A DNA stretch of 21,057 nt from Mikrocytos mackini (Eukaryota > Endomyxa > Ascetosporea > Mikrocytida > Mikrocytiidae), in the NCBI GenBank assembly GCA_030180075.1, contig JASNJN010000001.1, positions 1-21,057 on the forward strand, given 5' to 3'. The translations under genes were made by a program, and so were the position numbers. This document shows positions 3,694 through 18,719 of this stretch, one piece after another. Every line of letters begins with the position of its first letter. Position 1 is the first letter of the stretch. The notes under the pieces were generated by a model, which had not been told where the DNA came from, made no database searches, and worked only from the letters and a program-made list of their open reading frames with translations.

Positions 3694-4158
3694 TTACGAA
3701 AGACAACTGCTTGTAGTGGCAGATAGTTTTATGGCCTCGATAATTTCTGTGGTGCAAACATCCACTTCTCTGGGAATATGAATGAGCATGTTGTTGTCCC
3801 TTACGTGTTGGTAACCATCCTTCCCATCTGTGCCAGGATAAAGCGCACTGTCACGAGCTACAAAGTCTATGTTGTATTTTTCAACGAATTCTTTGGTTGG
3901 GAAGAAAGGAACATCCGTAAGGATTTCATCGGCGTCACGGAGCTGTGATATGATAGTAACTCTGTCCTCAAATGTGTAAATAGGATATCGTTTAATAGCT
4001 ATAGAATCAGCATCCTTGTTGATACCAACAATCAAATGGCAATCTGGAAATTTTCTTTTTATTTTCTGGAGTAGCAGAATATGGCCATGGTGTGTTAAAT
4101 CAAATACCCCGTCCGTATATACACGAAGTTTGGTTTCTTTGAGGGGTTTAAAAGTCAT
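3694..4158 (-). CDS. Phosphocholine (or phosphoethanolamine) cytidylyltransferase
   Basis: This 154-residue protein is a bare catalytic domain of the nucleotidyltransferase (cytidylyltransferase) family. It transfers CMP from CTP to phosphocholine or phosphoethanolamine, giving the CDP-alcohol used in the Kennedy pathway of phospholipid synthesis. The TDGVFDLTHHGH segment near residue 15 carries the HxGH nucleotide-binding motif. A VGINKDAD strand, a DEILTDVPF strand and a DFVARDSALYPGTDG loop follow in family order. The REVDVCTTEII segment near 130-140 corresponds to the RTEGISTSDII signature, with the first Arg and the T-E/D-I-I part kept. The membrane-binding amphipathic helix and phosphorylation tail of animal and yeast choline enzymes are absent, so membrane-regulated activity is unlikely. 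Choline versus ethanolamine specificity cannot be settled by eye. The start is the only upstream ATG, in an ATTTATGAC context. Confidence 0.9.
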   Translation of the reverse strand: MTFKPLKETKLRVYTDGVFDLTHHGHILLLQKIKRKFPDCHLIVGINKDADSIAIKRYPIYTFEDRVTIISQLRDADEILTDVPFFPTKEFVEKYNIDFVARDSALYPGTDGKDGYQHVRDNNMLIHIPREVDVCTTEIIEAIKLSATTSSCLS

Positions 4159-9693: not shown

Positions 9694-9879
9694 GTTATAT
9701 TTGGTGCGGTGTATCCTCTTTCGGTAAATATAGTGAAACCTGGGAAATTTAAAATTTTAATTTATCTATACCGATCAATAAGTAGCATATCCATATTGTC
9801 AATGGATGACAAATGCGACATTAGTGTCGTGCCCGGCTTCCGGATTTGAAGTGTAGTATGACTCTGTGTCATCGTAATA

Positions 9880-9902
9880 CAGTCAAACCTCGACTATCAG
9901 AA
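9880..9902 (+). repeat. Possible pogo/Tigger-type terminal repeat remnant
   Basis: TA followed by CAGTCAAACCTCGACTATC resembles, from memory, the terminal repeats of pogo/Tigger-like elements, which duplicate a TA target. No matching inverted end (…GACTGTA) is found before 9996, so at most one end is present. It lies about 100 bp upstream of the ATG at 9976 and could be part of its leader region. Confidence 0.3.
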
Positions 9903-9975
9903 ATATCTATCCGTAACTATCTTCGTAACCGTGATTATTTATGGGGGTTTTGGCCGTGATTTTGGAAAAATTGAA

Positions 9976-9996
9976 ATGTTCAGGGTTGTTTATATT
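9976..9996 (+). pseudogene. Native 5' end (7 codons) of the interrupted P-loop NTPase gene
   Basis: An ATG at 9976 opens seven codons (MFRVVYI) that run exactly to the left end of the retrotransposon. If the element (9997-14540) and one copy of the 5-bp target duplication are ignored, these codons lie in the same frame as the downstream NTPase coding sequence resuming at 14543. The context AAAAATTGAAATGT (9966-9979) is identical to that of the ATG at 4972. This is therefore most likely the original start of the NTPase gene. It is inferred from frame, context and target duplication, not from a homologue. Confidence 0.65.
9992..9996 (+). repeat. Left target-site duplication of the retrotransposon (imperfect)
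   Basis: ATATT directly precedes the TGTTA terminus of the 5' LTR. The five bases after the 3' LTR are CTATT (14541-14545), a 4 of 5 match. Ty3-type elements make 5-bp duplications. Confidence 0.5.
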
Positions 9997-10014
9997 TGTT
10001 ACGTCATGGACAAT

Positions 10015-10022
10015 GACATAAC
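10015..10022 (+). repeat. Left 8-bp target duplication of the MITE
   Basis: GACATAAC at 10015-10022 is repeated exactly at 10222-10229. The uninterrupted 3' LTR has this sequence once (14367-14374), which proves the duplication. Confidence 0.9.
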
Positions 10023-10221
10023 TAGGGGTCGGAAAATATATGACAAAAAATCGGCAAATATATGATTATATATGATTTTGTCAATATCTAATTATAATTT
10101 TGAATTTTCAATAAAATAAAATATATGAATTCCTTCAAATCTGAGTAATTATGGGTGAAAATTTTCCAGAAAATTGGTAAAATATATGATTTATACCAAA
10201 TCACATGTTTTCCGACCCCTA
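10023..10221. mobile_element. hAT-like MITE (199 bp) inside the 5' LTR
   Basis: The element has terminal inverted repeats TAGGGGTCGGAAAA…TTTTCCGACCCCTA and an exact 8-bp target duplication (GACATAAC), the hallmark of hAT transposition. It has no ORF, so it must have been moved by a transposase coded elsewhere. The subterminal regions carry several copies of a TATATGA motif in both orientations, as expected for hAT transposase binding. Comparison with the empty site in the 3' LTR gives both ends unambiguously. It lies upstream of the TATA-like region and separates it from the first TTACGTCA motif. Confidence 0.9.
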
Positions 10222-10229
10222 GACATAAC
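10222..10229 (+). repeat. Right 8-bp target duplication of the MITE
   Basis: This exact copy of GACATAAC follows the right terminal repeat. Confidence 0.9.
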
Positions 10230-10312
10230 TAATGACGTCATTGGCTTACGTCATTTTTAATTGTTTATAAATAAATATAATAATATAATAAAAACAGCAT
10301 CATCAATTATAA

Positions 10313-13300
10313 ATGTTCTTAAATAACTACAATAGACAAATGTCAACATCGACTAGTGTATATGACCACTATGTCACCCTAGGGCATATTAACATGATAT
10401 CATGTGATAAAATCGAAAGTTATTTATCAAACCCAAACTCAGAACATTCAGACTACAGCGACCACGATCCTTCATACAAAGCAGAAAAAGCAACCTTCGC
10501 ATTAAGCATCCCTAACACCAGTATAACAGTACAGAGATCATTGAACTTGTTAGCGGATACTCACAAACAGAACCTTATACAATGGGAAGAGGACTTCAAA
10601 GAAACAGTTTTATTCTGTCGATGGAGCCAGCAGACATCTAACCAAATACTGCATACCCTCTTAGCCAGTAGCATTCTCCCTATAGTTAAGGACCATATCA
10701 CCACACAGGATAAGTTACATGCGCTTCTCAAGCATAAATATCCGAAGGGAAAGAGCATCTTTTACTATAATGAACTGAATAAGATAAAACAAAGAAACTT
10801 CTTGACTATCACTCAGTACCATCAGCGTATCAAAGGGGTAGTAAAAAGATTATCTATCTGTCTAGAATGGAATGAAATGGACTACTATAAAAAGGTAGAA
10901 GAAGCTTTTTACGCGGGACTTACAAGGAAGACTAGTTTAGAGATTGTAAAGTTTACAGCATTGAATTTTGAAGAGTTAGTCGACTATATAAAGACACAAG
11001 AGGAATCGCTTATACAGATGGCATTAGACGATCATACAAAATACAACAACCGTCCAACTAAGCCCACTAACGCATTCTGTTCTTATCATCAGACTACTTC
11101 ACGCTCAACAAAAGACTGTAAAGCATTACACAGAGGAAACACTAGAAATCAATCCTTCCGTACACGCGAGCAAACAACACAAGACAGATCATCTTATAAT
11201 AGATCAGCCAACAGCGGCCAAAGAACGTGGAATACGAACAACCGTAGTTATTCACCTCAAGAGTCTACACAGAATAGACCACAATCGATAGAAAACGGAT
11301 CCTTTAGAAGATCAACCAACTCTTACAGTTCAAACAATAATAATAGAGCGAATAATAACCCTCGTAACTCAAGATCTTGGGCGCTCAAAGAACCACAAGA
11401 GATTCCAGATGTTTGTAGGACCAACGGAAAGGTCAACGAACTCCCAATAGAAATTGTATGGGACACAGGATCTGCATACAACTACTGTGGACCGGAAATT
11501 ATAAAGAAAAACAATATTAATTCAAATTCTATTCCAAATCAGAAGGTAGAACTTGCAAATGGCGAACAAATAACCGTCAATGAAGAAGCAAGGATTGACT
11601 TTAAGATAGGAAACGATTCAGAACACAAATTTAGCGGTAATTTTAGAATAATACCCGCAAGAAACAATGAACTTCTGATAGGTATGGACTTCATGAGGAA
11701 TAATGAAACCAAAATCGACCTAAAGAACAACCTCTTAGAAATAGATTCAAATCATTTCTTTAAATTAGGACTTACAAACAATAATAGTTCCAATGAGTTA
11801 CTTAACGACACTGAGAAAACGGTGATACAAAAGACGAAAATCTATAAAACCATTTCCAAAATTGAAAAACCAAAAGAAAAAGAACAAGACTTGGAAACAT
11901 ATATAGCAAAAGTTAAACTAAACAATCCTGCATTAGGTAAGATCGATAATGCTTTTCACAGAATTCCCTTAACAGAAGATAAATCAGTGAGTAGAAGACA
12001 ATACAATATTCCTTTAGCAATAAGAGAAGATACTAAAGATGAACTAAACAAATTACTAGACATGGAAATTATCAGATACAGTAACAGTACATTTTCTTCG
12101 CCAGCGTTTCCAGTATTAAAAAAGAATGGAAGCATTCGCCTAGTAGTTGACTACCGCGAATTGAATGGCATAACGAGAAAAGAACCATGCCCTCTAGAGA
12201 ACAGTTTCTTTAATCTTCTACAAGCCAAGGATATGAAAAATTTTTCGAGTAGAGATCTTAACATGGGTTATTACCAAATCCCAATTCACAAAGACGATAT
12301 TCATAAAACAGGATTTTCAGCGTGCGGAGAACATTATGAATTTGTGCGTATGCCCTTTGGCTTAGCAAATGCTCCTGCAACATTCCAAAAAACGTTAAAC
12401 AGAATAGTTGGGAATGAGAAAAACGTACATGTTTACCCAGACGACATTCTCATAGCGTCACCCAATGAAGAACAACATATCTCGGACGTTAAAAGAATTA
12501 TAAACAAGCTTGTGGAACACAACATATCTATAAACTTCGACAAAAGTAAATTCAATCAAAAAGAAATAGAATACCTTGGATTTATAGTTTCAGAAAACGG
12601 ATTAAACATAAAGAAAGAAGGTTTAGAACAAATAGGAACTACCACACCAAAGAAAACAAAAGATATACAAAAAATAATGGGACATCTTAATTGGTTTCGT
12701 AATTTCGTAAAAGATTTCAGCAGCAAAACAGAATTTCTTACAAATTTACTGCACAGAAACACGAAATTTAAATGGACTTCAGAAGAGGAAACGAAGTTAA
12801 CAAATCTACTTAAAGATATTAAAGAATCACAAACACTCAGCTTTCCAAAACCAGGAAAAGAATTCATACTAGAAACAGATGCCAATCTCACAGGTATCGG
12901 AGGAGTTTTAAAACAAGACGACCAAGTAGTCGCAATATTCAGCTATAAACTTAAAAATAGCGAAATTAATTACACAATTACAGAAAAAGAAACATTTGCA
13001 GTTGTCAAATCACTTGAATTCTTCAAACCAATAATATTTAACTCAAAAATAATAGTCAAAACAGACAACATGAATTTAATAGAAACAAAAGACTTGTCTA
13101 AGAGACAACAAAGATGGAAACTCTTACTAAGCGAGTACTGCCTCCAAATTCAACACATTAAAGGAGAAAATAACCAGTTAGCAGACGCAATGTCGAGACT
13201 TTCTTTTATTAAACAGATCAAAACAGACGTCGAGACAGCTAAAGAAAAGATAATAAAAGAATTCGCCGTCATAACAAACAAAGAAGAAGATAAACAAATA

Positions 13301-14374
13301 AAAGTATACGAACAAAACGTTTCTTTAGATGAGAGAGGTAGAGTCCTTATTGCTGACAACAAGCACATTAAAATGCTTACCTTTCTTCATAAATTCTTGA
13401 TACACCCGGGATCTAAAGCATTGGCACAAAGTGTGCGGAAATACTACAACATTCCTAAACTAAAGGAAGCATGCAAAAGAGTCACACATGCCTGTAAGTT
13501 GTGTCCAAAGATCAAGACACCTAAACAGAAATATGGAAACTTGAGCGGGCATTTAGCGAAGAAGGAAAACGATCACACCTTAGCTATTGACTTACTTGGA
13601 CCATTAGATACCAAGCACTTTAAGATGAACACAAAAACTAAAGAGTTCTCTATTCTAGTAATGGCAGATGCCTACACGAAGATGACAAAGTTAGAACTTT
13701 TATTAAAGACGTCTACAAACATAATTACAAAGAAGATTGAGAAAGGATGGTTCCCGGACATGGGAGTACCAAGGTTTATACTTAGTGATAACGGACCACA
13801 ATTCACGTCCAATGATTTCCTAAGCTTCTTAGCCGAACATGGCATACAAGAGACCAAAACGAGTCCTTATAACCCAACGAGCAATGCACTTATGGAAAGA
13901 CGTAATTCTGAAATACTAATCGGATTACGAGCTCAAAAGGGTATGGAAATAAAAGAAGTAATAAAGAAAATAGAAAGAAAACTAAACGTGAACAGCAGCG
14001 ACGAAATGAAACTCTCACCCCTTGAACTGTTAGAAGAACATGGACAACTTTATCCATTGGGAAGAGACCTGAATCAAGAGATAACAAAGGGAGTAGAAAT
14101 GAGAGAAGAATTAGCAAACTTAAGACTAACAAAAAGAAACGAGAAGCGTATAGCGCATGAGTATCAAGCAGGCGATTGGGTCTGGCTTAAGAACTTCAAT
14201 AAGAAAGATAAATTAGATTACAAATATAAAGGACCTTACCTTATTCTAGATACTTTAGGAGATAACAAACAAGTAGTAATAAAGTTCGGACATACAATAA
14301 GGAAACATAATGTGAAGAACATATTACCTTTTAATGAAAGAGACCAGGATGTTACGTCATGGACAATGACATAA
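10313..14374 (+). CDS. Ty3/gypsy Gag-Pol polyprotein
   Basis: A single 1353-residue frame without Gag/Pol frameshift. Gag (about 60-240) is followed by a zinc-knuckle-like C256-x2-H259-x4-R264-x4-C269, where a His is expected at 264. Protease has D384-T-G. Reverse transcriptase (about 555-735) has D648 and the box Y708-P-D-D, with Pro in place of the usual Leu, Val or Ile. RNase H has D856, E893, D918 and D958. Integrase has the zinc site H1026/H1031/C1061/C1064, the DD35E triad D1093, D1159, E1195, and a GPY module at G1307-P-Y. The N-terminal 27 residues are coded by the 5' LTR and the last codons and stop by the 3' LTR. Role: particle formation, cDNA synthesis and integration. No chromodomain is seen. 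The length is normal for a one-ORF Ty3 element. Confidence 0.95.
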   Translation: MFLNNYNRQMSTSTSVYDHYVTLGHINMISCDKIESYLSNPNSEHSDYSDHDPSYKAEKATFALSIPNTSITVQRSLNLLADTHKQNLIQWEEDFKETVLFCRWSQQTSNQILHTLLASSILPIVKDHITTQDKLHALLKHKYPKGKSIFYYNELNKIKQRNFLTITQYHQRIKGVVKRLSICLEWNEMDYYKKVEEAFYAGLTRKTSLEIVKFTALNFEELVDYIKTQEESLIQMALDDHTKYNNRPTKPTNAFCSYHQTTSRSTKDCKALHRGNTRNQSFRTREQTTQDRSSYNRSANSGQRTWNTNNRSYSPQESTQNRPQSIENGSFRRSTNSYSSNNNNRANNNPRNSRSWALKEPQEIPDVCRTNGKVNELPIEIVWDTGSAYNYCGPEIIKKNNINSNSIPNQKVELANGEQITVNEEARIDFKIGNDSEHKFSGNFRIIPARNNELLIGMDFMRNNETKIDLKNNLLEIDSNHFFKLGLTNNNSSNELLNDTEKTVIQKTKIYKTISKIEKPKEKEQDLETYIAKVKLNNPALGKIDNAFHRIPLTEDKSVSRRQYNIPLAIREDTKDELNKLLDMEIIRYSNSTFSSPAFPVLKKNGSIRLVVDYRELNGITRKEPCPLENSFFNLLQAKDMKNFSSRDLNMGYYQIPIHKDDIHKTGFSACGEHYEFVRMPFGLANAPATFQKTLNRIVGNEKNVHVYPDDILIASPNEEQHISDVKRIINKLVEHNISINFDKSKFNQKEIEYLGFIVSENGLNIKKEGLEQIGTTTPKKTKDIQKIMGHLNWFRNFVKDFSSKTEFLTNLLHRNTKFKWTSEEETKLTNLLKDIKESQTLSFPKPGKEFILETDANLTGIGGVLKQDDQVVAIFSYKLKNSEINYTITEKETFAVVKSLEFFKPIIFNSKIIVKTDNMNLIETKDLSKRQQRWKLLLSEYCLQIQHIKGENNQLADAMSRLSFIKQIKTDVETAKEKIIKEFAVITNKEEDKQIKVYEQNVSLDERGRVLIADNKHIKMLTFLHKFLIHPGSKALAQSVRKYYNIPKLKEACKRVTHACKLCPKIKTPKQKYGNLSGHLAKKENDHTLAIDLLGPLDTKHFKMNTKTKEFSILVMADAYTKMTKLELLLKTSTNIITKKIEKGWFPDMGVPRFILSDNGPQFTSNDFLSFLAEHGIQETKTSPYNPTSNALMERRNSEILIGLRAQKGMEIKEVIKKIERKLNVNSSDEMKLSPLELLEEHGQLYPLGRDLNQEITKGVEMREELANLRLTKRNEKRIAHEYQAGDWVWLKNFNKKDKLDYKYKGPYLILDTLGDNKQVVIKFGHTIRKHNVKNILPFNERDQDVTSWTMT

Positions 14375-14399
14375 CTAATGACGTCATTGGCTTACGTCA
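14352..14399 (+). promoter_or_regulatory. Cluster of CRE/bZIP-like motifs in the LTR
   Basis: TTACGTCA (14352-14359), the perfect palindrome TGACGTCA (14379-14386) and TTACGTCA (14392-14399) lie within 48 bp, about 60-110 bp upstream of the ATG. TGACGTCA is the classic CREB/ATF-type bZIP site. The cluster is also in the 5' LTR, where the MITE splits off the first motif. That it binds a bZIP protein in this organism is inference. Confidence 0.5.
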
Positions 14400-14407
14400 T
14401 TTTTAAT

Positions 14408-14437
14408 TGTTTATAAATAAATATAATAATATAATAA
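14408..14437 (+). promoter_or_regulatory. TATA-like core promoter of the LTR
   Basis: GTTTATAAATAAATATAATA and following A/T run lie about 25-50 bp before the ATG at 14459, and the same stretch is present in the 5' LTR. It is the best candidate for the core promoter that drives the polyprotein from the left LTR and possibly the NTPase gene from the right LTR. Confidence 0.45.
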
Positions 14438-14458
14438 AAACAGCATCATCAATTATAA

Positions 14459-16072
14459 ATGTTCTTAAATAACTACGATAGACAAATTTCAACATCGACT
14501 AGTGTATATGACCACTATGTCACCCTAGGGAATATTAAATCTATTGCAAAACAACACGATGACACAAAGCCACGAGGAACTACAGATAAGAAATATTCAA
14601 TATGGAAAATCTTCGAAAGAGATCCTGTATTCTTTATTAATGACATTCGCCTTGCTATCAAGCTCCTTAATTTCATCGCACAAAGACATATGAGTATGAT
14701 AATCAATGAATCCTCTGCCTCAGGCAAAACATCCTTTATAGAAGTTTTCACCGGGATAATCCAACATGGCGCCAATAAGATGTATTTAAACACATTAGAA
14801 TGTGAAGACACAAATAACGAAATCAAAGAGGTATGTGAAACTATTGTTTCTATAAGTTTAAATTTTTCTATAATTTACAAGAGAGTTTGGAGTAGTTGCG
14901 AATTGGAAAAAGATTTTATTCGTGAAATAATAAAAGAGATTATATCCCAGGCCAAATCTAGAATACAATTGACCCATTTACAGGAAGGCTTCCTTGATAA
15001 TTATTTGGATGATATCCAACGACTCGAAAACCAATCCTCTTATGGTTTAGTAAGGATACACAACGACCTTATGTTCATTTTAATAGATGCGGTATATAAA
15101 GAAAGGCTATACAAAAAGACGGTTTGCAAAGAAAACAAAATAAAAGAGAATAACCAAACAAACTCCAAGATGATAACGAAGATCATCTTTATAATTGATG
15201 AAATCAACGTGTTTGAACTAAAAAATATCCGTTCAACTCTTTTAAACGACAACACTCAACATCGCAACTGGTATATACAAATGATGGAGGCTGCCATATC
15301 ACCAGATAAGGACCATCTTGGACGACGTAGCTATTCATTTATTCTTACTTCCATATTACCCATTTCTTTTGAAAGAGAAGAAGAAAACAAACGTATACGT
15401 TTTACATCTTTTTCTAAGTTTCTATCTACATTTGAAGAAAAGGATAGAACTTCGTTTGGAGAGGTTACATACGGTTTCTATAACGAAATAGCAAAAGCCG
15501 AAGGTGAAAATAAACTAAAAACATTTTTAGAACAAATCCGAATAAAAAAGAACATATTAGAAGATTACTTAGATGAAAATATTGGAAATGGAAAGGTAGA
15601 AATGAACAAAGTTTGGTTCCACTGTTTCCCAAAGAATTTATACAGAGGAAATAAAATGAAATCTGGAATTACACATCAAGAAAGAATAAATAGATCTTTT
15701 AGCTTTTTCCAAGTCTTATGGGGACAATTTGTTTATAAAGTGAAATTCGACAATGACCTATTAAGACGGGGACTTAAATACAATATGTGTGCAGAAAGCA
15801 ACAAAGAAAGTGTATACAACATGTATAAGATAAACACGGGTTATTTCATGCATTTTTTAATGAACGAAACGGCTAAAAATAGCATATCAATCAAACAAGA
15901 GAGCAATGTTTCTAGTGAGAAATATATGGAGAATTTTTGGGCAGGTTACACCAATCTTAAAGAGAGATATAGCATTGAGGATTATTCAATGTATTTATCA
16001 GACGAACATGCCCATATGTTATATGATCAGTCGAAACTTATAAAACACAATTGCTTCGAGAAGACTATTTAA
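14459..16072 (+). CDS. P-loop NTPase (Crinkler/RHS-like) with LTR-derived N-terminus
   Basis: The 537-residue ORF starts at the ATG inside the 3' LTR; residues 1-27 are LTR-coded and match the start of the retroelement polyprotein (MFLNNY, STSTSVYDHYVTLG). From residue 28 on it is host sequence. A divergent Walker A is at E84-S-S-A-S-G-K90-T-S and a Walker B at about 243-248 (FIIDE), after a helical, Lys/Glu-rich region. This build, an N-terminal leader, a P-loop NTPase and a C-terminal nuclease-like part, recalls Crinkler/RHS-type proteins that are often linked to transposons; that assignment is inference. The original start is probably 9976. An in-frame TAA (16070-16072) ends this part, but the same frame stays open to 16600. 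It may be transcribed from the LTR, though the gene is likely damaged. Confidence 0.75.
   Translation: MFLNNYDRQISTSTSVYDHYVTLGNIKSIAKQHDDTKPRGTTDKKYSIWKIFERDPVFFINDIRLAIKLLNFIAQRHMSMIINESSASGKTSFIEVFTGIIQHGANKMYLNTLECEDTNNEIKEVCETIVSISLNFSIIYKRVWSSCELEKDFIREIIKEIISQAKSRIQLTHLQEGFLDNYLDDIQRLENQSSYGLVRIHNDLMFILIDAVYKERLYKKTVCKENKIKENNQTNSKMITKIIFIIDEINVFELKNIRSTLLNDNTQHRNWYIQMMEAAISPDKDHLGRRSYSFILTSILPISFEREEENKRIRFTSFSKFLSTFEEKDRTSFGEVTYGFYNEIAKAEGENKLKTFLEQIRIKKNILEDYLDENIGNGKVEMNKVWFHCFPKNLYRGNKMKSGITHQERINRSFSFFQVLWGQFVYKVKFDNDLLRRGLKYNMCAESNKESVYNMYKINTGYFMHFLMNETAKNSISIKQESNVSSEKYMENFWAGYTNLKERYSIEDYSMYLSDEHAHMLYDQSKLIKHNCFEKTI
14541..14545 (+). repeat. Right target-site duplication of the retrotransposon (imperfect)
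   Basis: CTATT follows the 3' LTR and matches ATATT at 9992-9996 in four of five bases. The first full host codon of the resumed NTPase frame is ATT at 14543. Confidence 0.5.
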
Positions 16073-16600
16073 GAATCTTACTATTTAGGCCATACTATAT
16101 TAATGCTCACACAGATTGAAAATGATGGAGCTACAAGAAGAGAACAATTAGCGGATGGTTCATCAAGAGAAATAATGGAGGATGGAAGCTTACAATTTGA
16201 ATTAGTGACCTCGAATTTAATGAAGGAGCGACATGTTTACAATTGTCACCAAAACTATATAAACAATTTAGTGAATTTACATGGGATTACGGATTCTGAG
16301 AAAAGAAATTTCAAAAAAGTGACATTCAACATAAAATTTTGGAAGAACTTCATAATATCACTTAAGAAAGAAATACAAAGTCCAAGATTCGTCGCAGATG
16401 AGGCATTTTCGGAAAAAGATTTCGAGACAGCATTTATAACGCTTATAAATGAGCGATTGCTCGACTATATTTCTAAGGCAACCACAATTAGCGACAAAGA
16501 TAAACTCAAATACATGGTTGGAAAGGCAGAGCCACAGCAGGTGTTTGGGAAAAAAATCCCTGAAGAACAAGGCAGTGAAACGTCGCGAATTGATATTTAA
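16073..16600 (+). pseudogene. NTPase gene, middle part after in-frame stop
   Basis: The frame of the preceding ORF continues without further stop from 16073 (ESYYLGHTILMLTQIEND…) to TAA 16598-16600. An ATG at 16103 would give 165 residues. The part is hydrophilic, with helical stretches (FWKNFIISLKKEI, DFETAFITLINERLLDYI), and no domain is recognised. Because frame and character are continuous, I read the TAA at 16070-16072 as a premature stop in one gene. Alternatively it is the true end and this is a separate short gene. Confidence 0.55.
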
Positions 16601-16986
16601 TACAGTTAACTGCAGAACACAAAGAAGGCGAGCGATTCTATGCTGTATTTGAATTGAAGATCGATAGACCACATCTTAAGAACTTAGATATATTGGTAAA
16701 CGAAGGTAAAAATTATGATACAATTGGATTCTTAAATAGAGAAAAGAAAGTTTTTATTGGAGCAACTCTGAACAAACCGGGCTTCCCTCCACAAAGCGAG
16801 GTACGCACATTTTCGTGTATCATGGCAGAATCAATAGGTCAATCTGTAAGAGATGAAGAGTGTACAAAAATCGTCTTTGAATGTATGGGAGGTAAACAAG
16901 AAAATAGAGATAGGATGTTTATGAAACAATTTATTGGAACTAAAGAAAATTGTTTAAATAATAAAATAACAATTCGAAGAAGATAA
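16592..16986 (+). pseudogene. NTPase gene, C-terminal part in a shifted frame; possible REase-fold tail
   Basis: The neighbouring frame opens after TGA at 16591 and runs to TAA 16984-16986 without an ATG at its start. It contains AEHKEGERFYAVFELKIDRP, where a hydrophobic strand ends in E-x-K (E at 16651-16653, K at 16657-16659), as in the (D/E)xK motif of PD-(D/E)XK nucleases. A second strand-like stretch, KKVFIGATLNKPG, and a basic C-terminus (KITIRRR) follow. A one-base indel between about 16592 and 16620 would connect it with the preceding part. In Crinkler/RHS-type proteins a restriction-endonuclease-fold domain follows the NTPase, which fits, but the upstream acidic residue of the motif is not assigned. 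Function is inferred. Confidence 0.5.
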
Positions 16987-17501
16987 AATATTATTAACTC
17001 ATTTAAAATATATGGTTATCCAAGGTCTTCGACTTTTAAACACTTAACTGATTTTTATTCCTATCGTTCCCTTTACTTTATCCAGAATACAATGCGATAT
17101 AGAACTTTTGGAACACCTAAAAAAGTTTTTTTATCAACAAACTTTTTGAGAGAGGTAGAAACTGGGTCTAGACCTTGGTCTGGTCTGGACCATGGTCCAG
17201 ACCGGTTGTTGGTCCAGACCGAATTCTGGTCTACGAGTTGTAGAAGTCCGTAAATTTTGTGTTTTGAAAATAAATTTGGCAAATGTTTGTTGTCGTTATG
17301 GCGAAGTGTTTTGGGACATAACCAAGTGTTTATTAAAGCATGTATATGTAATTTTATATTTGAAATTGATCTATAACTAAAAACACCTCTTAAATCAGAC
17401 CATTATCTATATAATTTTGATTTGTTTTGTGAATCATATTGTTAGATACCTCGTATTTTGTAAAACCAAATTCATCTAAAGTTTAAATTCAAATTCAAAA
17501 A
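16987..17501. other. Intergenic region with palindromic GGTCTGGACC cluster
   Basis: About 515 bp without a gene. The remarkable part is the palindromic cluster at 17165-17230; the rest is AT-rich. Short open stretches on both strands here are products of that repeat and are not called. Confidence 0.5.
17165..17230. repeat. Cluster of GGTCTRGACC palindromes
   Basis: GGTCTAGACC (17165-17174) is a perfect 10-bp palindrome. 17182-17203 is a perfect 22-bp palindrome built from GGTCTGGACC, AT-centre and its complement. A further GGTCCAGACC is at 17211-17220, and more half sites (GGTCT) are at 17178 and 17227. It is a G/C-rich island in AT-rich DNA, some 280 bp upstream of the transposase ATG. It could be a microsatellite-like repeat, a transposon end or a protein-binding array. 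Confidence 0.7.
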
Positions 17502-18719
17502 ATGACCATAAATGCACCAGAGAAAATCACGGTATCTGGAAGAATATATTCTTATAAATGTGATTTATCAGGTAATAAACTTTCTTATCGCTGCATATAT
17601 CGTTCTAAATGCAAAGTATCATTACATCTAAACAATGAGCACTTATTTGACGAAAGCAAAACAGAAATAATACCGTTAAAAGTAGTAAATGAACATACAT
17701 GCTCCCCAAAAACAAATTCAAATAATTTAACTTTAGCTATAGAAAAAGAACAAGAGTATTCAGAAATTCAAAAAAAGGCGATATATTTAATTAGTCTCAA
17801 TCATACTAAAGAAGTTTCCTGGCATATAGACAATATCAGGCAGAACAACATAGGATTAACTGACAATCAAGTGAAGTATCTCCTACATAAATATCGCTCA
17901 TCTACTTTTCCTAATGATCTTGAGTATATGAAAGACCCATTCTATTTGAAGAATTCAATAAATAGAGATAGTGGGAATAATGAGGAACCGTTGTGCCTGT
18001 CATATAACAAATTCTACAATCCTTCCAAAAGAACTATAGAAGTCTGGTTAGTCTATTCTTCCTACTTCCACCTCAATATACTTGCAAATAGTAAACAGGT
18101 CTTTGTTGATGGTACATTTAGAACATGTCCAAATGGCTTCTACCAAGTTGTAGTAGTTCATGCTTTCGATACTTTGTCTTCGACNGTAAGGCCAGTTTTA
18201 CATGCCATACTCTCATCTAAGACGCTCGAGATATACCATGCACTGTTCGTTGAGATCAAAAGAAAGACTGAAGAAATGAACTTAAGTTTGTGTTGGGAGG
18301 TCGTCCATAGTGATTTTGAGAAAGCTTTATATTCTCCCGTAATGAAAAGAATCCCAAAGATAAACTTCAAAGGGTGTTATTTTCATTACGTTAAAGCTAT
18401 TTGGAATAATTTAAAGAAACATCAACTCATAAAGAGGACAACAAAAGGAGTTATTTTAAATGTTGTTTATGTGTTAAAGAAACTTCCATTTTTAGAGATT
18501 AATTTTAGAAAACGATGCTTTGGTTTATTTAATATTGAAGTTAATAAATTATTACGAGAAAAGAAAATGAGCAGCGAATATATTTATAAATTTAATGAAT
18601 TCATGAAATATTACAATAAGAATTGGACGACTTATGAAATCAGTTGGAAGTATGGGAGCAATGTTGGATTTTATCCTAAATATACAACAATGTTTGTGAG
18701 ATTTACAACAAAAAGCTAA
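17502..18719 (+). pseudogene. MULE (Mutator-like) transposase, N-terminal and core part
   Basis: The 405-codon frame starts at ATG in an A-rich leader. Residues 20-67 form a zinc-finger-like region, C31-x5-C37 … H65-x-C67, of the FLYWCH/WRKY-GCM1 kind that binds transposon ends. The MULE catalytic core follows: FVDGTFRTCP with D203, SDFEKAL with D271, and GCYFHYVKAIW, which carries the family's C-x2-H motif. The third catalytic acid is absent in this frame because the frame is lost about 18 codons before the stop. The downstream segment carries the missing part in another frame. One ambiguous base lies at 18185. The enzyme family cuts and pastes DNA transposons with 9-10 bp duplications. No matching long terminal inverted repeats were found around it. 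Confidence 0.85.

What the first reader, a model, noticed from the sequence alone, without database searches (positions are those of the whole stretch)
9976..14560. Retrotransposon inserted seven codons into an NTPase gene, with the LTR supplying a new in-frame start
The left flank holds an ATG (9976) and seven codons that end exactly at the 5' LTR. If the element and one 5-bp target copy are ignored, this frame continues in the NTPase coding sequence from 14543. Independently, the 3' LTR has its own ATG (14459), which is in frame with the same sequence. So the insertion may not silence the gene but replace its promoter, start and first residues. This needs both the right LTR phase and the right insertion frame (about one chance in three for the frame), so it may be chance or the survivor of selection.
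Basis: partly seen in the sequence, partly recalled or inferred. Interest (0 to 1): 0.82.

Follow-up and report, generated by a model that had tools for sequence, protein, structure and literature searches.

The report
Jumping gene split an NTPase gene
A virus-like jumping gene (a gypsy-type retrotransposon) lies next to the larger part of an NTPase gene in a genome that is probably that of an oyster parasite, and the end of the jumping gene carries its own start codon in frame with that gene; but the seven codons first noted on its other side are part of an unrelated repeat, the gene's real first 40 codons appear to lie on another piece of the assembly, and the new start is likely a chance fusion to a gene that is cut short further on.

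Summary
The 3' LTR (14350-14537) does carry an ATG (14459) in frame with the NTPase sequence (537-aa ORF, 14459-16072). The "seven codons" part is wrong. Bases 9878-9996, with the ATG at 9976, belong to a dispersed DNA repeat found at 15 other places that reach the same edge; nine of nine copies read go on into unrelated DNA. The proposed target copy fails too: the element's ends are flanked by ATATT and AATCT. AATCT recurs on contig C483, left of a 99% identical element, and the 40 codons before it match the N-terminus of the closest NTPase paralogue. Most simply, a gypsy element inserted after codon 40 of the NTPase gene; its left half is on C483, its right half here, joined through the element to a second insertion in the repeat by mis-assembly or recombination (undecided). 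The LTR start is the element's own Gag start: the Gag-Pol ORF begins inside the LTR and is open to its edge. The NTPase frame meets a stop (16070-16072) and a frame change (about 16597) relative to a 789-aa relative. A protein search with the NTPase part found one relative (54%), none from this gene. The in-frame start is real; a working LTR-driven gene is unsupported.

The parts
9878..9996 (+).
   Evidence: 15 other places run to the same edge; 9 of 9 copies read continue into other DNA
9997..10391 (+). 5' LTR of the gypsy element (188 bp of LTR, plus a nested 198-bp insert and nine duplicated bases)
   Evidence: 98% repeat of the 3' LTR over 171 bp; left edge TGTTACG shared with C483
10025..10222 (+). 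Small nested transposon (MITE-like) in the 5' LTR, ends GGGGTCGG/CCGACCCC, flanked by nine-base duplication ACATAACTA (10016-10024, 10223-10231)
   Evidence: 39 other long rows at 91-98% (which scored 40 of 205 candidates); absent from the C483 copy
10313..14374 (+). Gag-Pol ORF, 1353 aa; starts inside the 5' LTR and ends inside the 3' LTR; protease, RT, RNase H, integrase in that order
14350..14537 (+). 3' LTR; ACGTCA/TGACGT boxes, a TATAAATA (14412-14419), then ATG 14459 with a frame open to the LTR's right edge
14459..16072 (+). Fused ORF, 537 aa: 26 LTR-encoded codons, then NTPase sequence, ending at TAA 16070-16072
14538..14542 (+). AATCT, read as the right copy of the target duplication; the left copy is at C483:1729-1733
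14538..16770 (+). 3' part of a P-loop NTPase-like gene, interrupted by a stop (16070-16072) and a frame change near 16597 relative to P0001

Best explanation
A gypsy-type retrotransposon appears to have inserted in the sense direction after codon 40 of an NTPase gene, and its right LTR, which carries the element's own Gag start codon in a frame open to the LTR's edge, gives the rest of that gene an in-frame ATG that is likely a one-in-three accident. The gene's own first 40 codons and the matching target-site copy (AATCT) are on contig C483, beside a 99% identical copy of the element. The window's left flank is the edge of a second insertion, in a dispersed DNA repeat. The two insertions are joined through the element on this contig: inferred, most likely by mis-assembly of two near-identical copies in a short-read assembly, otherwise by recombination between the copies. 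Shown by sequence: the two half-sites, the shared AATCT, the matching frames, the LTR start, the later stop and frame change. Inferred: that the two half-sites are one gene, that the gene no longer works, and that any LTR-started product would be a truncated fusion.
For: C483:1614-1733 (ATG, 40 codons, ending at the LTR) aligns without gaps over 39 residues to the N-terminus of the closest paralogue (C297, 74% identical to the window's NTPase); score 81 against 22.1 +/- 4.5, 0 of 2000 shuffles reach it. The same test on the window's left 40 codons: score 17, 1578 of 2000 reach it. C483:1729-1733 and window 14538-14542 are both AATCT, with TCT a codon in both frames. LTR edges fixed independently. 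The C483 left piece has no other near copy among the held contigs (that search also missed the 75% stretch in C297, so only near copies are excluded), and the next best NTPase match to the window is 74% (all 67 candidates scored). The left-flank repeat has 15 other places to the same edge, and its uninterrupted form TTGTTTATATTGGTTAAAAATA is found 13 times. Decay downstream: one stop and one frame change against P0001.
Against: The C483 N-terminal piece matches only C297 strongly; against three other relatives its scores are 15 (P0001; 1957 of 2000 shuffles reach it), 21 (L005; 811) and 29 (L003; 43), so N-termini of this family diverge fast. The expected right half of the repeat insertion (LTR end, then ATATTGGTTAAAA) was not found: 0 of 21 pattern hits. 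C483 does not carry it either: from base 4121 it passes into another gypsy element. No reads were available to say whether the window's join is real. dN/dS of 0.21 against C297 shows past constraint on this copy or its relative, so the gene need not have been long dead.
Confidence: 0.83

Rival explanations
1. A version of the best explanation in which the window is a true recombinant, not a mis-assembly: a break inside the element in the NTPase gene was repaired at one end by copying from the second element in the dispersed repeat (giving this window) and at the other end by end joining to an unrelated gypsy element (giving C483), splitting one gene over two places.
For: Both window junctions are clean LTR edges. 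The C483 switch at 4121 shares only short patches with both partners, which an overlap assembler would hardly join without spanning reads (inference). Before that switch the window and C483 copies differ by 17 mismatches (of 20 mismatches and a two-base gap in the whole 2398-column alignment), so they are separate copies up to that point.
Against: No reciprocal product was seen in the LTR and pattern searches of the held contigs. The genome probably comes from a short-read MIRA assembly reported as very fragmented, with 56% of predicted genes of transposon origin (PMC10245619, passages read), in which mis-joins through repeats are expected (inference).
Confidence: 0.35
2. One reading: one insertion after codon seven of the NTPase gene, the seven codons being the gene's own N-terminus.
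For: The frame of 9976-9996 is in phase with the NTPase frame if the element and five bases are ignored (by reading).
Against: The flank is a dispersed repeat; flanking five-mers differ; paralogues carry longer, unrelated N-termini; an N-terminus that fits is on C483.
Confidence: 0.02
3. The LTR has taken over the gene: promoter boxes, TATA-like sequence and ATG in the LTR drive a functional shortened NTPase with 26 new residues.
For: An ORF of 537 aa where the four other LTR right edges examined run only 36-46 aa from the same ATG; ACGTCA/TGACGT boxes and TATAAATA upstream; dN/dS 0.21 against C297.
Against: Stop and frame change remove the C-terminal part present in the 789-aa relative. A search with the NTPase part returned one protein among 7334 candidates, a 54% relative, and a search with the Gag part none among 812, in a database that holds at least one Mikrocytos mackini transcript protein. 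The three differences between the 3' LTR and C483's 5' LTR are too few to show selection. One in-frame case has a one in three chance.
Confidence: 0.08

Closest known systems
Ty3/gypsy LTR retrotransposons
   Same: LTR pair; protease, RT, RNase H and integrase in gypsy order in one ORF; five-base target duplication for a solo LTR of a related type (C82) and for the split NTPase insertion
   Different: The Gag-Pol ORF starts inside the LTR and is open through the LTR's right edge; not claimed to be unique among gypsy elements
Ty1 of yeast (copia type)
   Same: Its primer binding site lies within the GAG ORF (PMC4974528, passages read), which implies that GAG starts in or at the LTR, as here (inference; also my recollection)
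   Different: Ty1 is of the other superfamily with a different pol order (recalled)
Mouse ORR1A0 LTR chimeric transcripts (PMC4056533, passages read)
   Same: An LTR inside a gene acts as a promoter for downstream gene sequence
   Different: There each ATG in the consensus LTR exon is followed by an in-frame stop; here the LTR ATG is open into the gene. Transcription was shown there, not here
Crinkler/RHS-type NTPase-nuclease proteins
   Same: A large divergent family with a P-loop-like motif (SGKTS) and a C-terminal FELK stretch (seen; their meaning is recalled)
   Different: No Pfam match, no solved relative (best E 0.61), fold model too poor to use; papers on such proteins seen only as a search listing

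Membership tests
Ty3/gypsy LTR retrotransposon | Pol domains in the order protease, RT, RNase H, integrase | tested here: met
   Pfam: protease 359-473, RT 602-759, RNase H 847-942, integrase 1099-1188
Ty3/gypsy LTR retrotransposon | Paired direct LTRs | tested here: met
   98% over 171 bp; 188-bp LTR once the nested insert is set aside
Ty3/gypsy LTR retrotransposon | Five-base target duplication flanking this copy's two ends | tested here: not met
   ATATT against AATCT in the window; met for C82 (GTTGC) and for C483-left with window-right (AATCT)
Ty3/gypsy LTR retrotransposon | Primer binding site next to the 5' LTR | not tested
   No tRNA comparison was made
LTR-driven host gene (exaptation) | Start codon in the LTR in frame with host coding sequence | tested here: met
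   ATG 14459, 537-aa ORF
LTR-driven host gene (exaptation) | Transcript starting in the LTR | not testable with these tools
   No reads held; two protein searches gave no product of this locus
LTR-driven host gene (exaptation) | Intact coding sequence downstream | tested here: not met
   Stop 16070-16072 and frame change near 16597 against P0001
Crinkler/RHS-type protein | Significant match to a family profile | tested here: not met
   No Pfam family for the three window pieces at E 0.1, nor for P0001 and the C483 ORF at E 5

The most novel reading that the evidence does not exclude
Gypsy elements of this rhizarian carry, at the edge of their LTRs, a portable cassette of promoter boxes, start codon and about 26 open codons. 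An insertion into one NTPase gene, followed by a break inside the element, split that gene over two chromosomal places and left its 3' part as a new gene with an LTR-made N-terminus, so retrotransposons here act as translational gene traps that reshape a large host gene family.
Probability: 0.1. Interest if true: 0.72.

Novelty: new member of a known kind. Interest (0 to 1): 0.36.

Why it matters
It corrects a tempting inference: the left flank of an element in a fragmented, repeat-rich assembly need not belong to the gene on its right, and it shows how to find the true partner (target duplication plus paralogue N-terminus). The general point worth keeping is that the Gag start lies inside the LTR and its frame is open to the LTR edge in this element, and apparently in two related types, so each sense insertion in coding sequence has about one chance in three of making an LTR-started fusion frame. 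A genome-wide count of such fusions against chance would be a simple, decisive test.

Tried and rejected

Led nowhere: the third protein search, on the Gag part (0 of 812 candidates); a search with the cytidylyltransferase ORF at E 1e-30 (0 of 21 candidates); the fold of P0001 (mean pLDDT 32; no fold search made); solved structures (best E 0.61); two of three further element regions fetched (C694, C144) showed no LTR pair, and in the third (C324) no frame of more than 150 aa crosses the 5' LTR edge. Paper searches for LTR-encoded starts and for mikrocytid gypsy elements (whose 8 listed of 2433 papers held no use of the word Mikrocytos) showed in their listings no report of this insertion; only those listings and the passages of the papers named were seen.

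Full report
What was claimed. The letters are there. The element is a gypsy-type retrotransposon: Pfam finds protease, reverse transcriptase, RNase H and integrase in that order in a 1353-aa ORF, 10313-14374.

Where the LTR ends. In a related element on C324, two LTR copies are identical over 133 bases up to CATATTA and then diverge. A solo LTR on C82 runs from TGTTACG to CATATTA between two copies of GTTGC. By these two independent guides the window's LTRs are 9997-10391 and 14350-14537; the first holds a nested 198-bp insert with a nine-base duplication, and without these both LTRs are 188 bp. The flanking five-mers are then ATATT on the left and AATCT on the right, so this copy has no target duplication of its own.

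The left flank is a repeat. Searching the window's own assembly (G000, 733 contigs, 13.6 Mb) with 9700-9996 gave 21 rows: the window itself, 15 places that match through to base 9996, one that stops 19 bases short, and four that match only 9822-9878. A pattern search allowing three mismatches gave 21 hits: 13 are the uninterrupted repeat, 8 are other sequences, and none has the LTR end in front of the repeat's right half. So the seven codons belong to a dispersed DNA repeat.

The gene's real beginning. A 99% identical copy of the element lies on contig C483 from base 1734 (20 mismatches and a two-base gap over 2398 columns, 17 of the mismatches before the point where C483 leaves the element). 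The bases just left of it are AATCT, the same as right of the window's element. The 40 codons before it, from an ATG at 1614, align without gaps over 39 residues to the N-terminus of the closest NTPase paralogue (C297), score 81 against 22.1 +/- 4.5, 0 of 2000 shuffles as high. The same test with the window's left 40 codons gave 17 (1578 of 2000). Against P0001, L005 and L003 the C483 piece scored 15, 21 and 29 (1957, 811 and 43 of 2000) and the window piece 17, 14 and 15 (1096, 1958 and 1499), so only C297 is informative. TCT of the duplication is a codon in both halves. The C483 piece has no other near copy among the held contigs, and no other NTPase copy is nearer to the window than 74%. 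I compared the halves separately and did not join them.

How the window came to look like this. Two insertions of near-identical elements are joined here: one in the dispersed repeat (left) and one in the NTPase gene (right). C483 carries the left part of the NTPase insertion, then passes at 4121 into a different gypsy element (99% to C694), with only short shared patches. Either the assembler switched copies, or real recombination did.

Source. The species is probably Mikrocytos mackini: the only protein relative found (1 of 7334 candidates) is from accession GAHX01, that parasite's transcriptome (PMC9998036, passages), and one G000 contig of 69,612 bases exceeds the 40,223 maximum of the sister species Paramikrocytos canceri but not the 76,988 of M. 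mackini (PMC10245619, passages). Against this simple match, the published assembly has 16,018 contigs and 49.7 Mb, G000 only 733 and 13.6 Mb; every contig length shown to me was above 10 kb, so G000 may hold only the long contigs (inference). The published assembly was made from short reads with MIRA and is described as very fragmented; a re-assembly gave 15.4 Mb, the difference being laid to the handling of repeats (PMC11069148, passages). I hold mis-assembly somewhat more likely than recombination, without reads to decide.

The LTR start. The ATG at 14459 corresponds to the element's own Gag start at 10313, which lies inside the 5' LTR. Two related types look alike: in the C324/C82 type the LTR has an ATG with a frame open to its edge and pol similarity begins inside the LTR (residue 11 on), though the C324 copy is broken and no frame of more than 150 aa crosses its 5' LTR edge; in the C694 type the ATG starts a 531-aa frame, the LTR edge there being judged from where C694, C483 and C612 diverge, since no LTR pair was found on C694. 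Run-on from this ATG is 537 aa in the window and 46, 41, 39 and 36 aa at the four other LTR right edges examined (C82, C324, C483 second element, C612). An in-frame result in a sense insertion into coding sequence has one chance in three, so one case proves nothing about selection. Upstream in the LTR are ACGTCA/TGACGT boxes (four word hits, two of them overlapping) and TATAAATA; promoter activity is untested.

Is the downstream gene intact? Against the 789-aa P0001, the window frame meets a TAA at 16070-16072 and changes frame near 16597. Before that, dN/dS against C297 is 0.21 over 501 codons, past constraint in this copy or its relative. The three differences between the 3' LTR and the C483 LTR all lie in the LTR's coding part, too few to interpret. 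The protein database gave one relative of the NTPase part, at 54%, and none of Gag (0 of 812 candidates).

Verdict. The in-frame LTR start is real, the insertion into an NTPase gene is well supported, the seven-codon N-terminus is not. Functional takeover by the LTR is possible but has evidence against it.

Noticed in passing
10025-10222: MITE-like insert in the 5' LTR with nine-base duplication ACATAACTA; 39 other long rows at 91-98% (40 of 205 candidates scored). A Mutator-type (MULE) transposase ORF lies at 17487-18719 (Pfam E 3e-10); whether the two are related was not tested.
   Followed up: partly
C483:4121 (L039): The second copy of the element switches in mid pol into another gypsy element's integrase end and LTR, with only short shared patches: chimeric element or mis-join.
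   Followed up: partly
G000, 52 rows: The NTPase belongs to a large, fast-diverging family (52 match rows, 11 with stops inside); no Pfam family matches. P0001, L005, L003 and the C483 piece start with MP; C297, L006 and L008 do not.
   Followed up: partly
14350-14458 and the C324 LTR: ACGTCA/TGACGT boxes repeated in LTRs that are only about 80% identical (four and three word hits), like bZIP-type sites (motif recalled).
   Followed up: no
L023 1652-3118 (C365): The DNA repeat in which the left insertion sits is followed on C365 by a palindrome of about 1.5 kb (93% self-complementary).
   Followed up: no
9822-9878: This stretch matches places on both sides of a gypsy pol on C634, so it may be an LTR fragment of another family, making the left flank a nest of repeats.
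   Followed up: no
262-759 and 1029-1104: A 124-bp inverted repeat with 250-bp spacer and a 38-bp tandem pair at the window's left end.
   Followed up: no
3694-4158: Minus-strand cytidylyltransferase-like ORF (Pfam E 7e-17), the only one of the non-transposon ORFs tested with a clear Pfam match.
   Followed up: no
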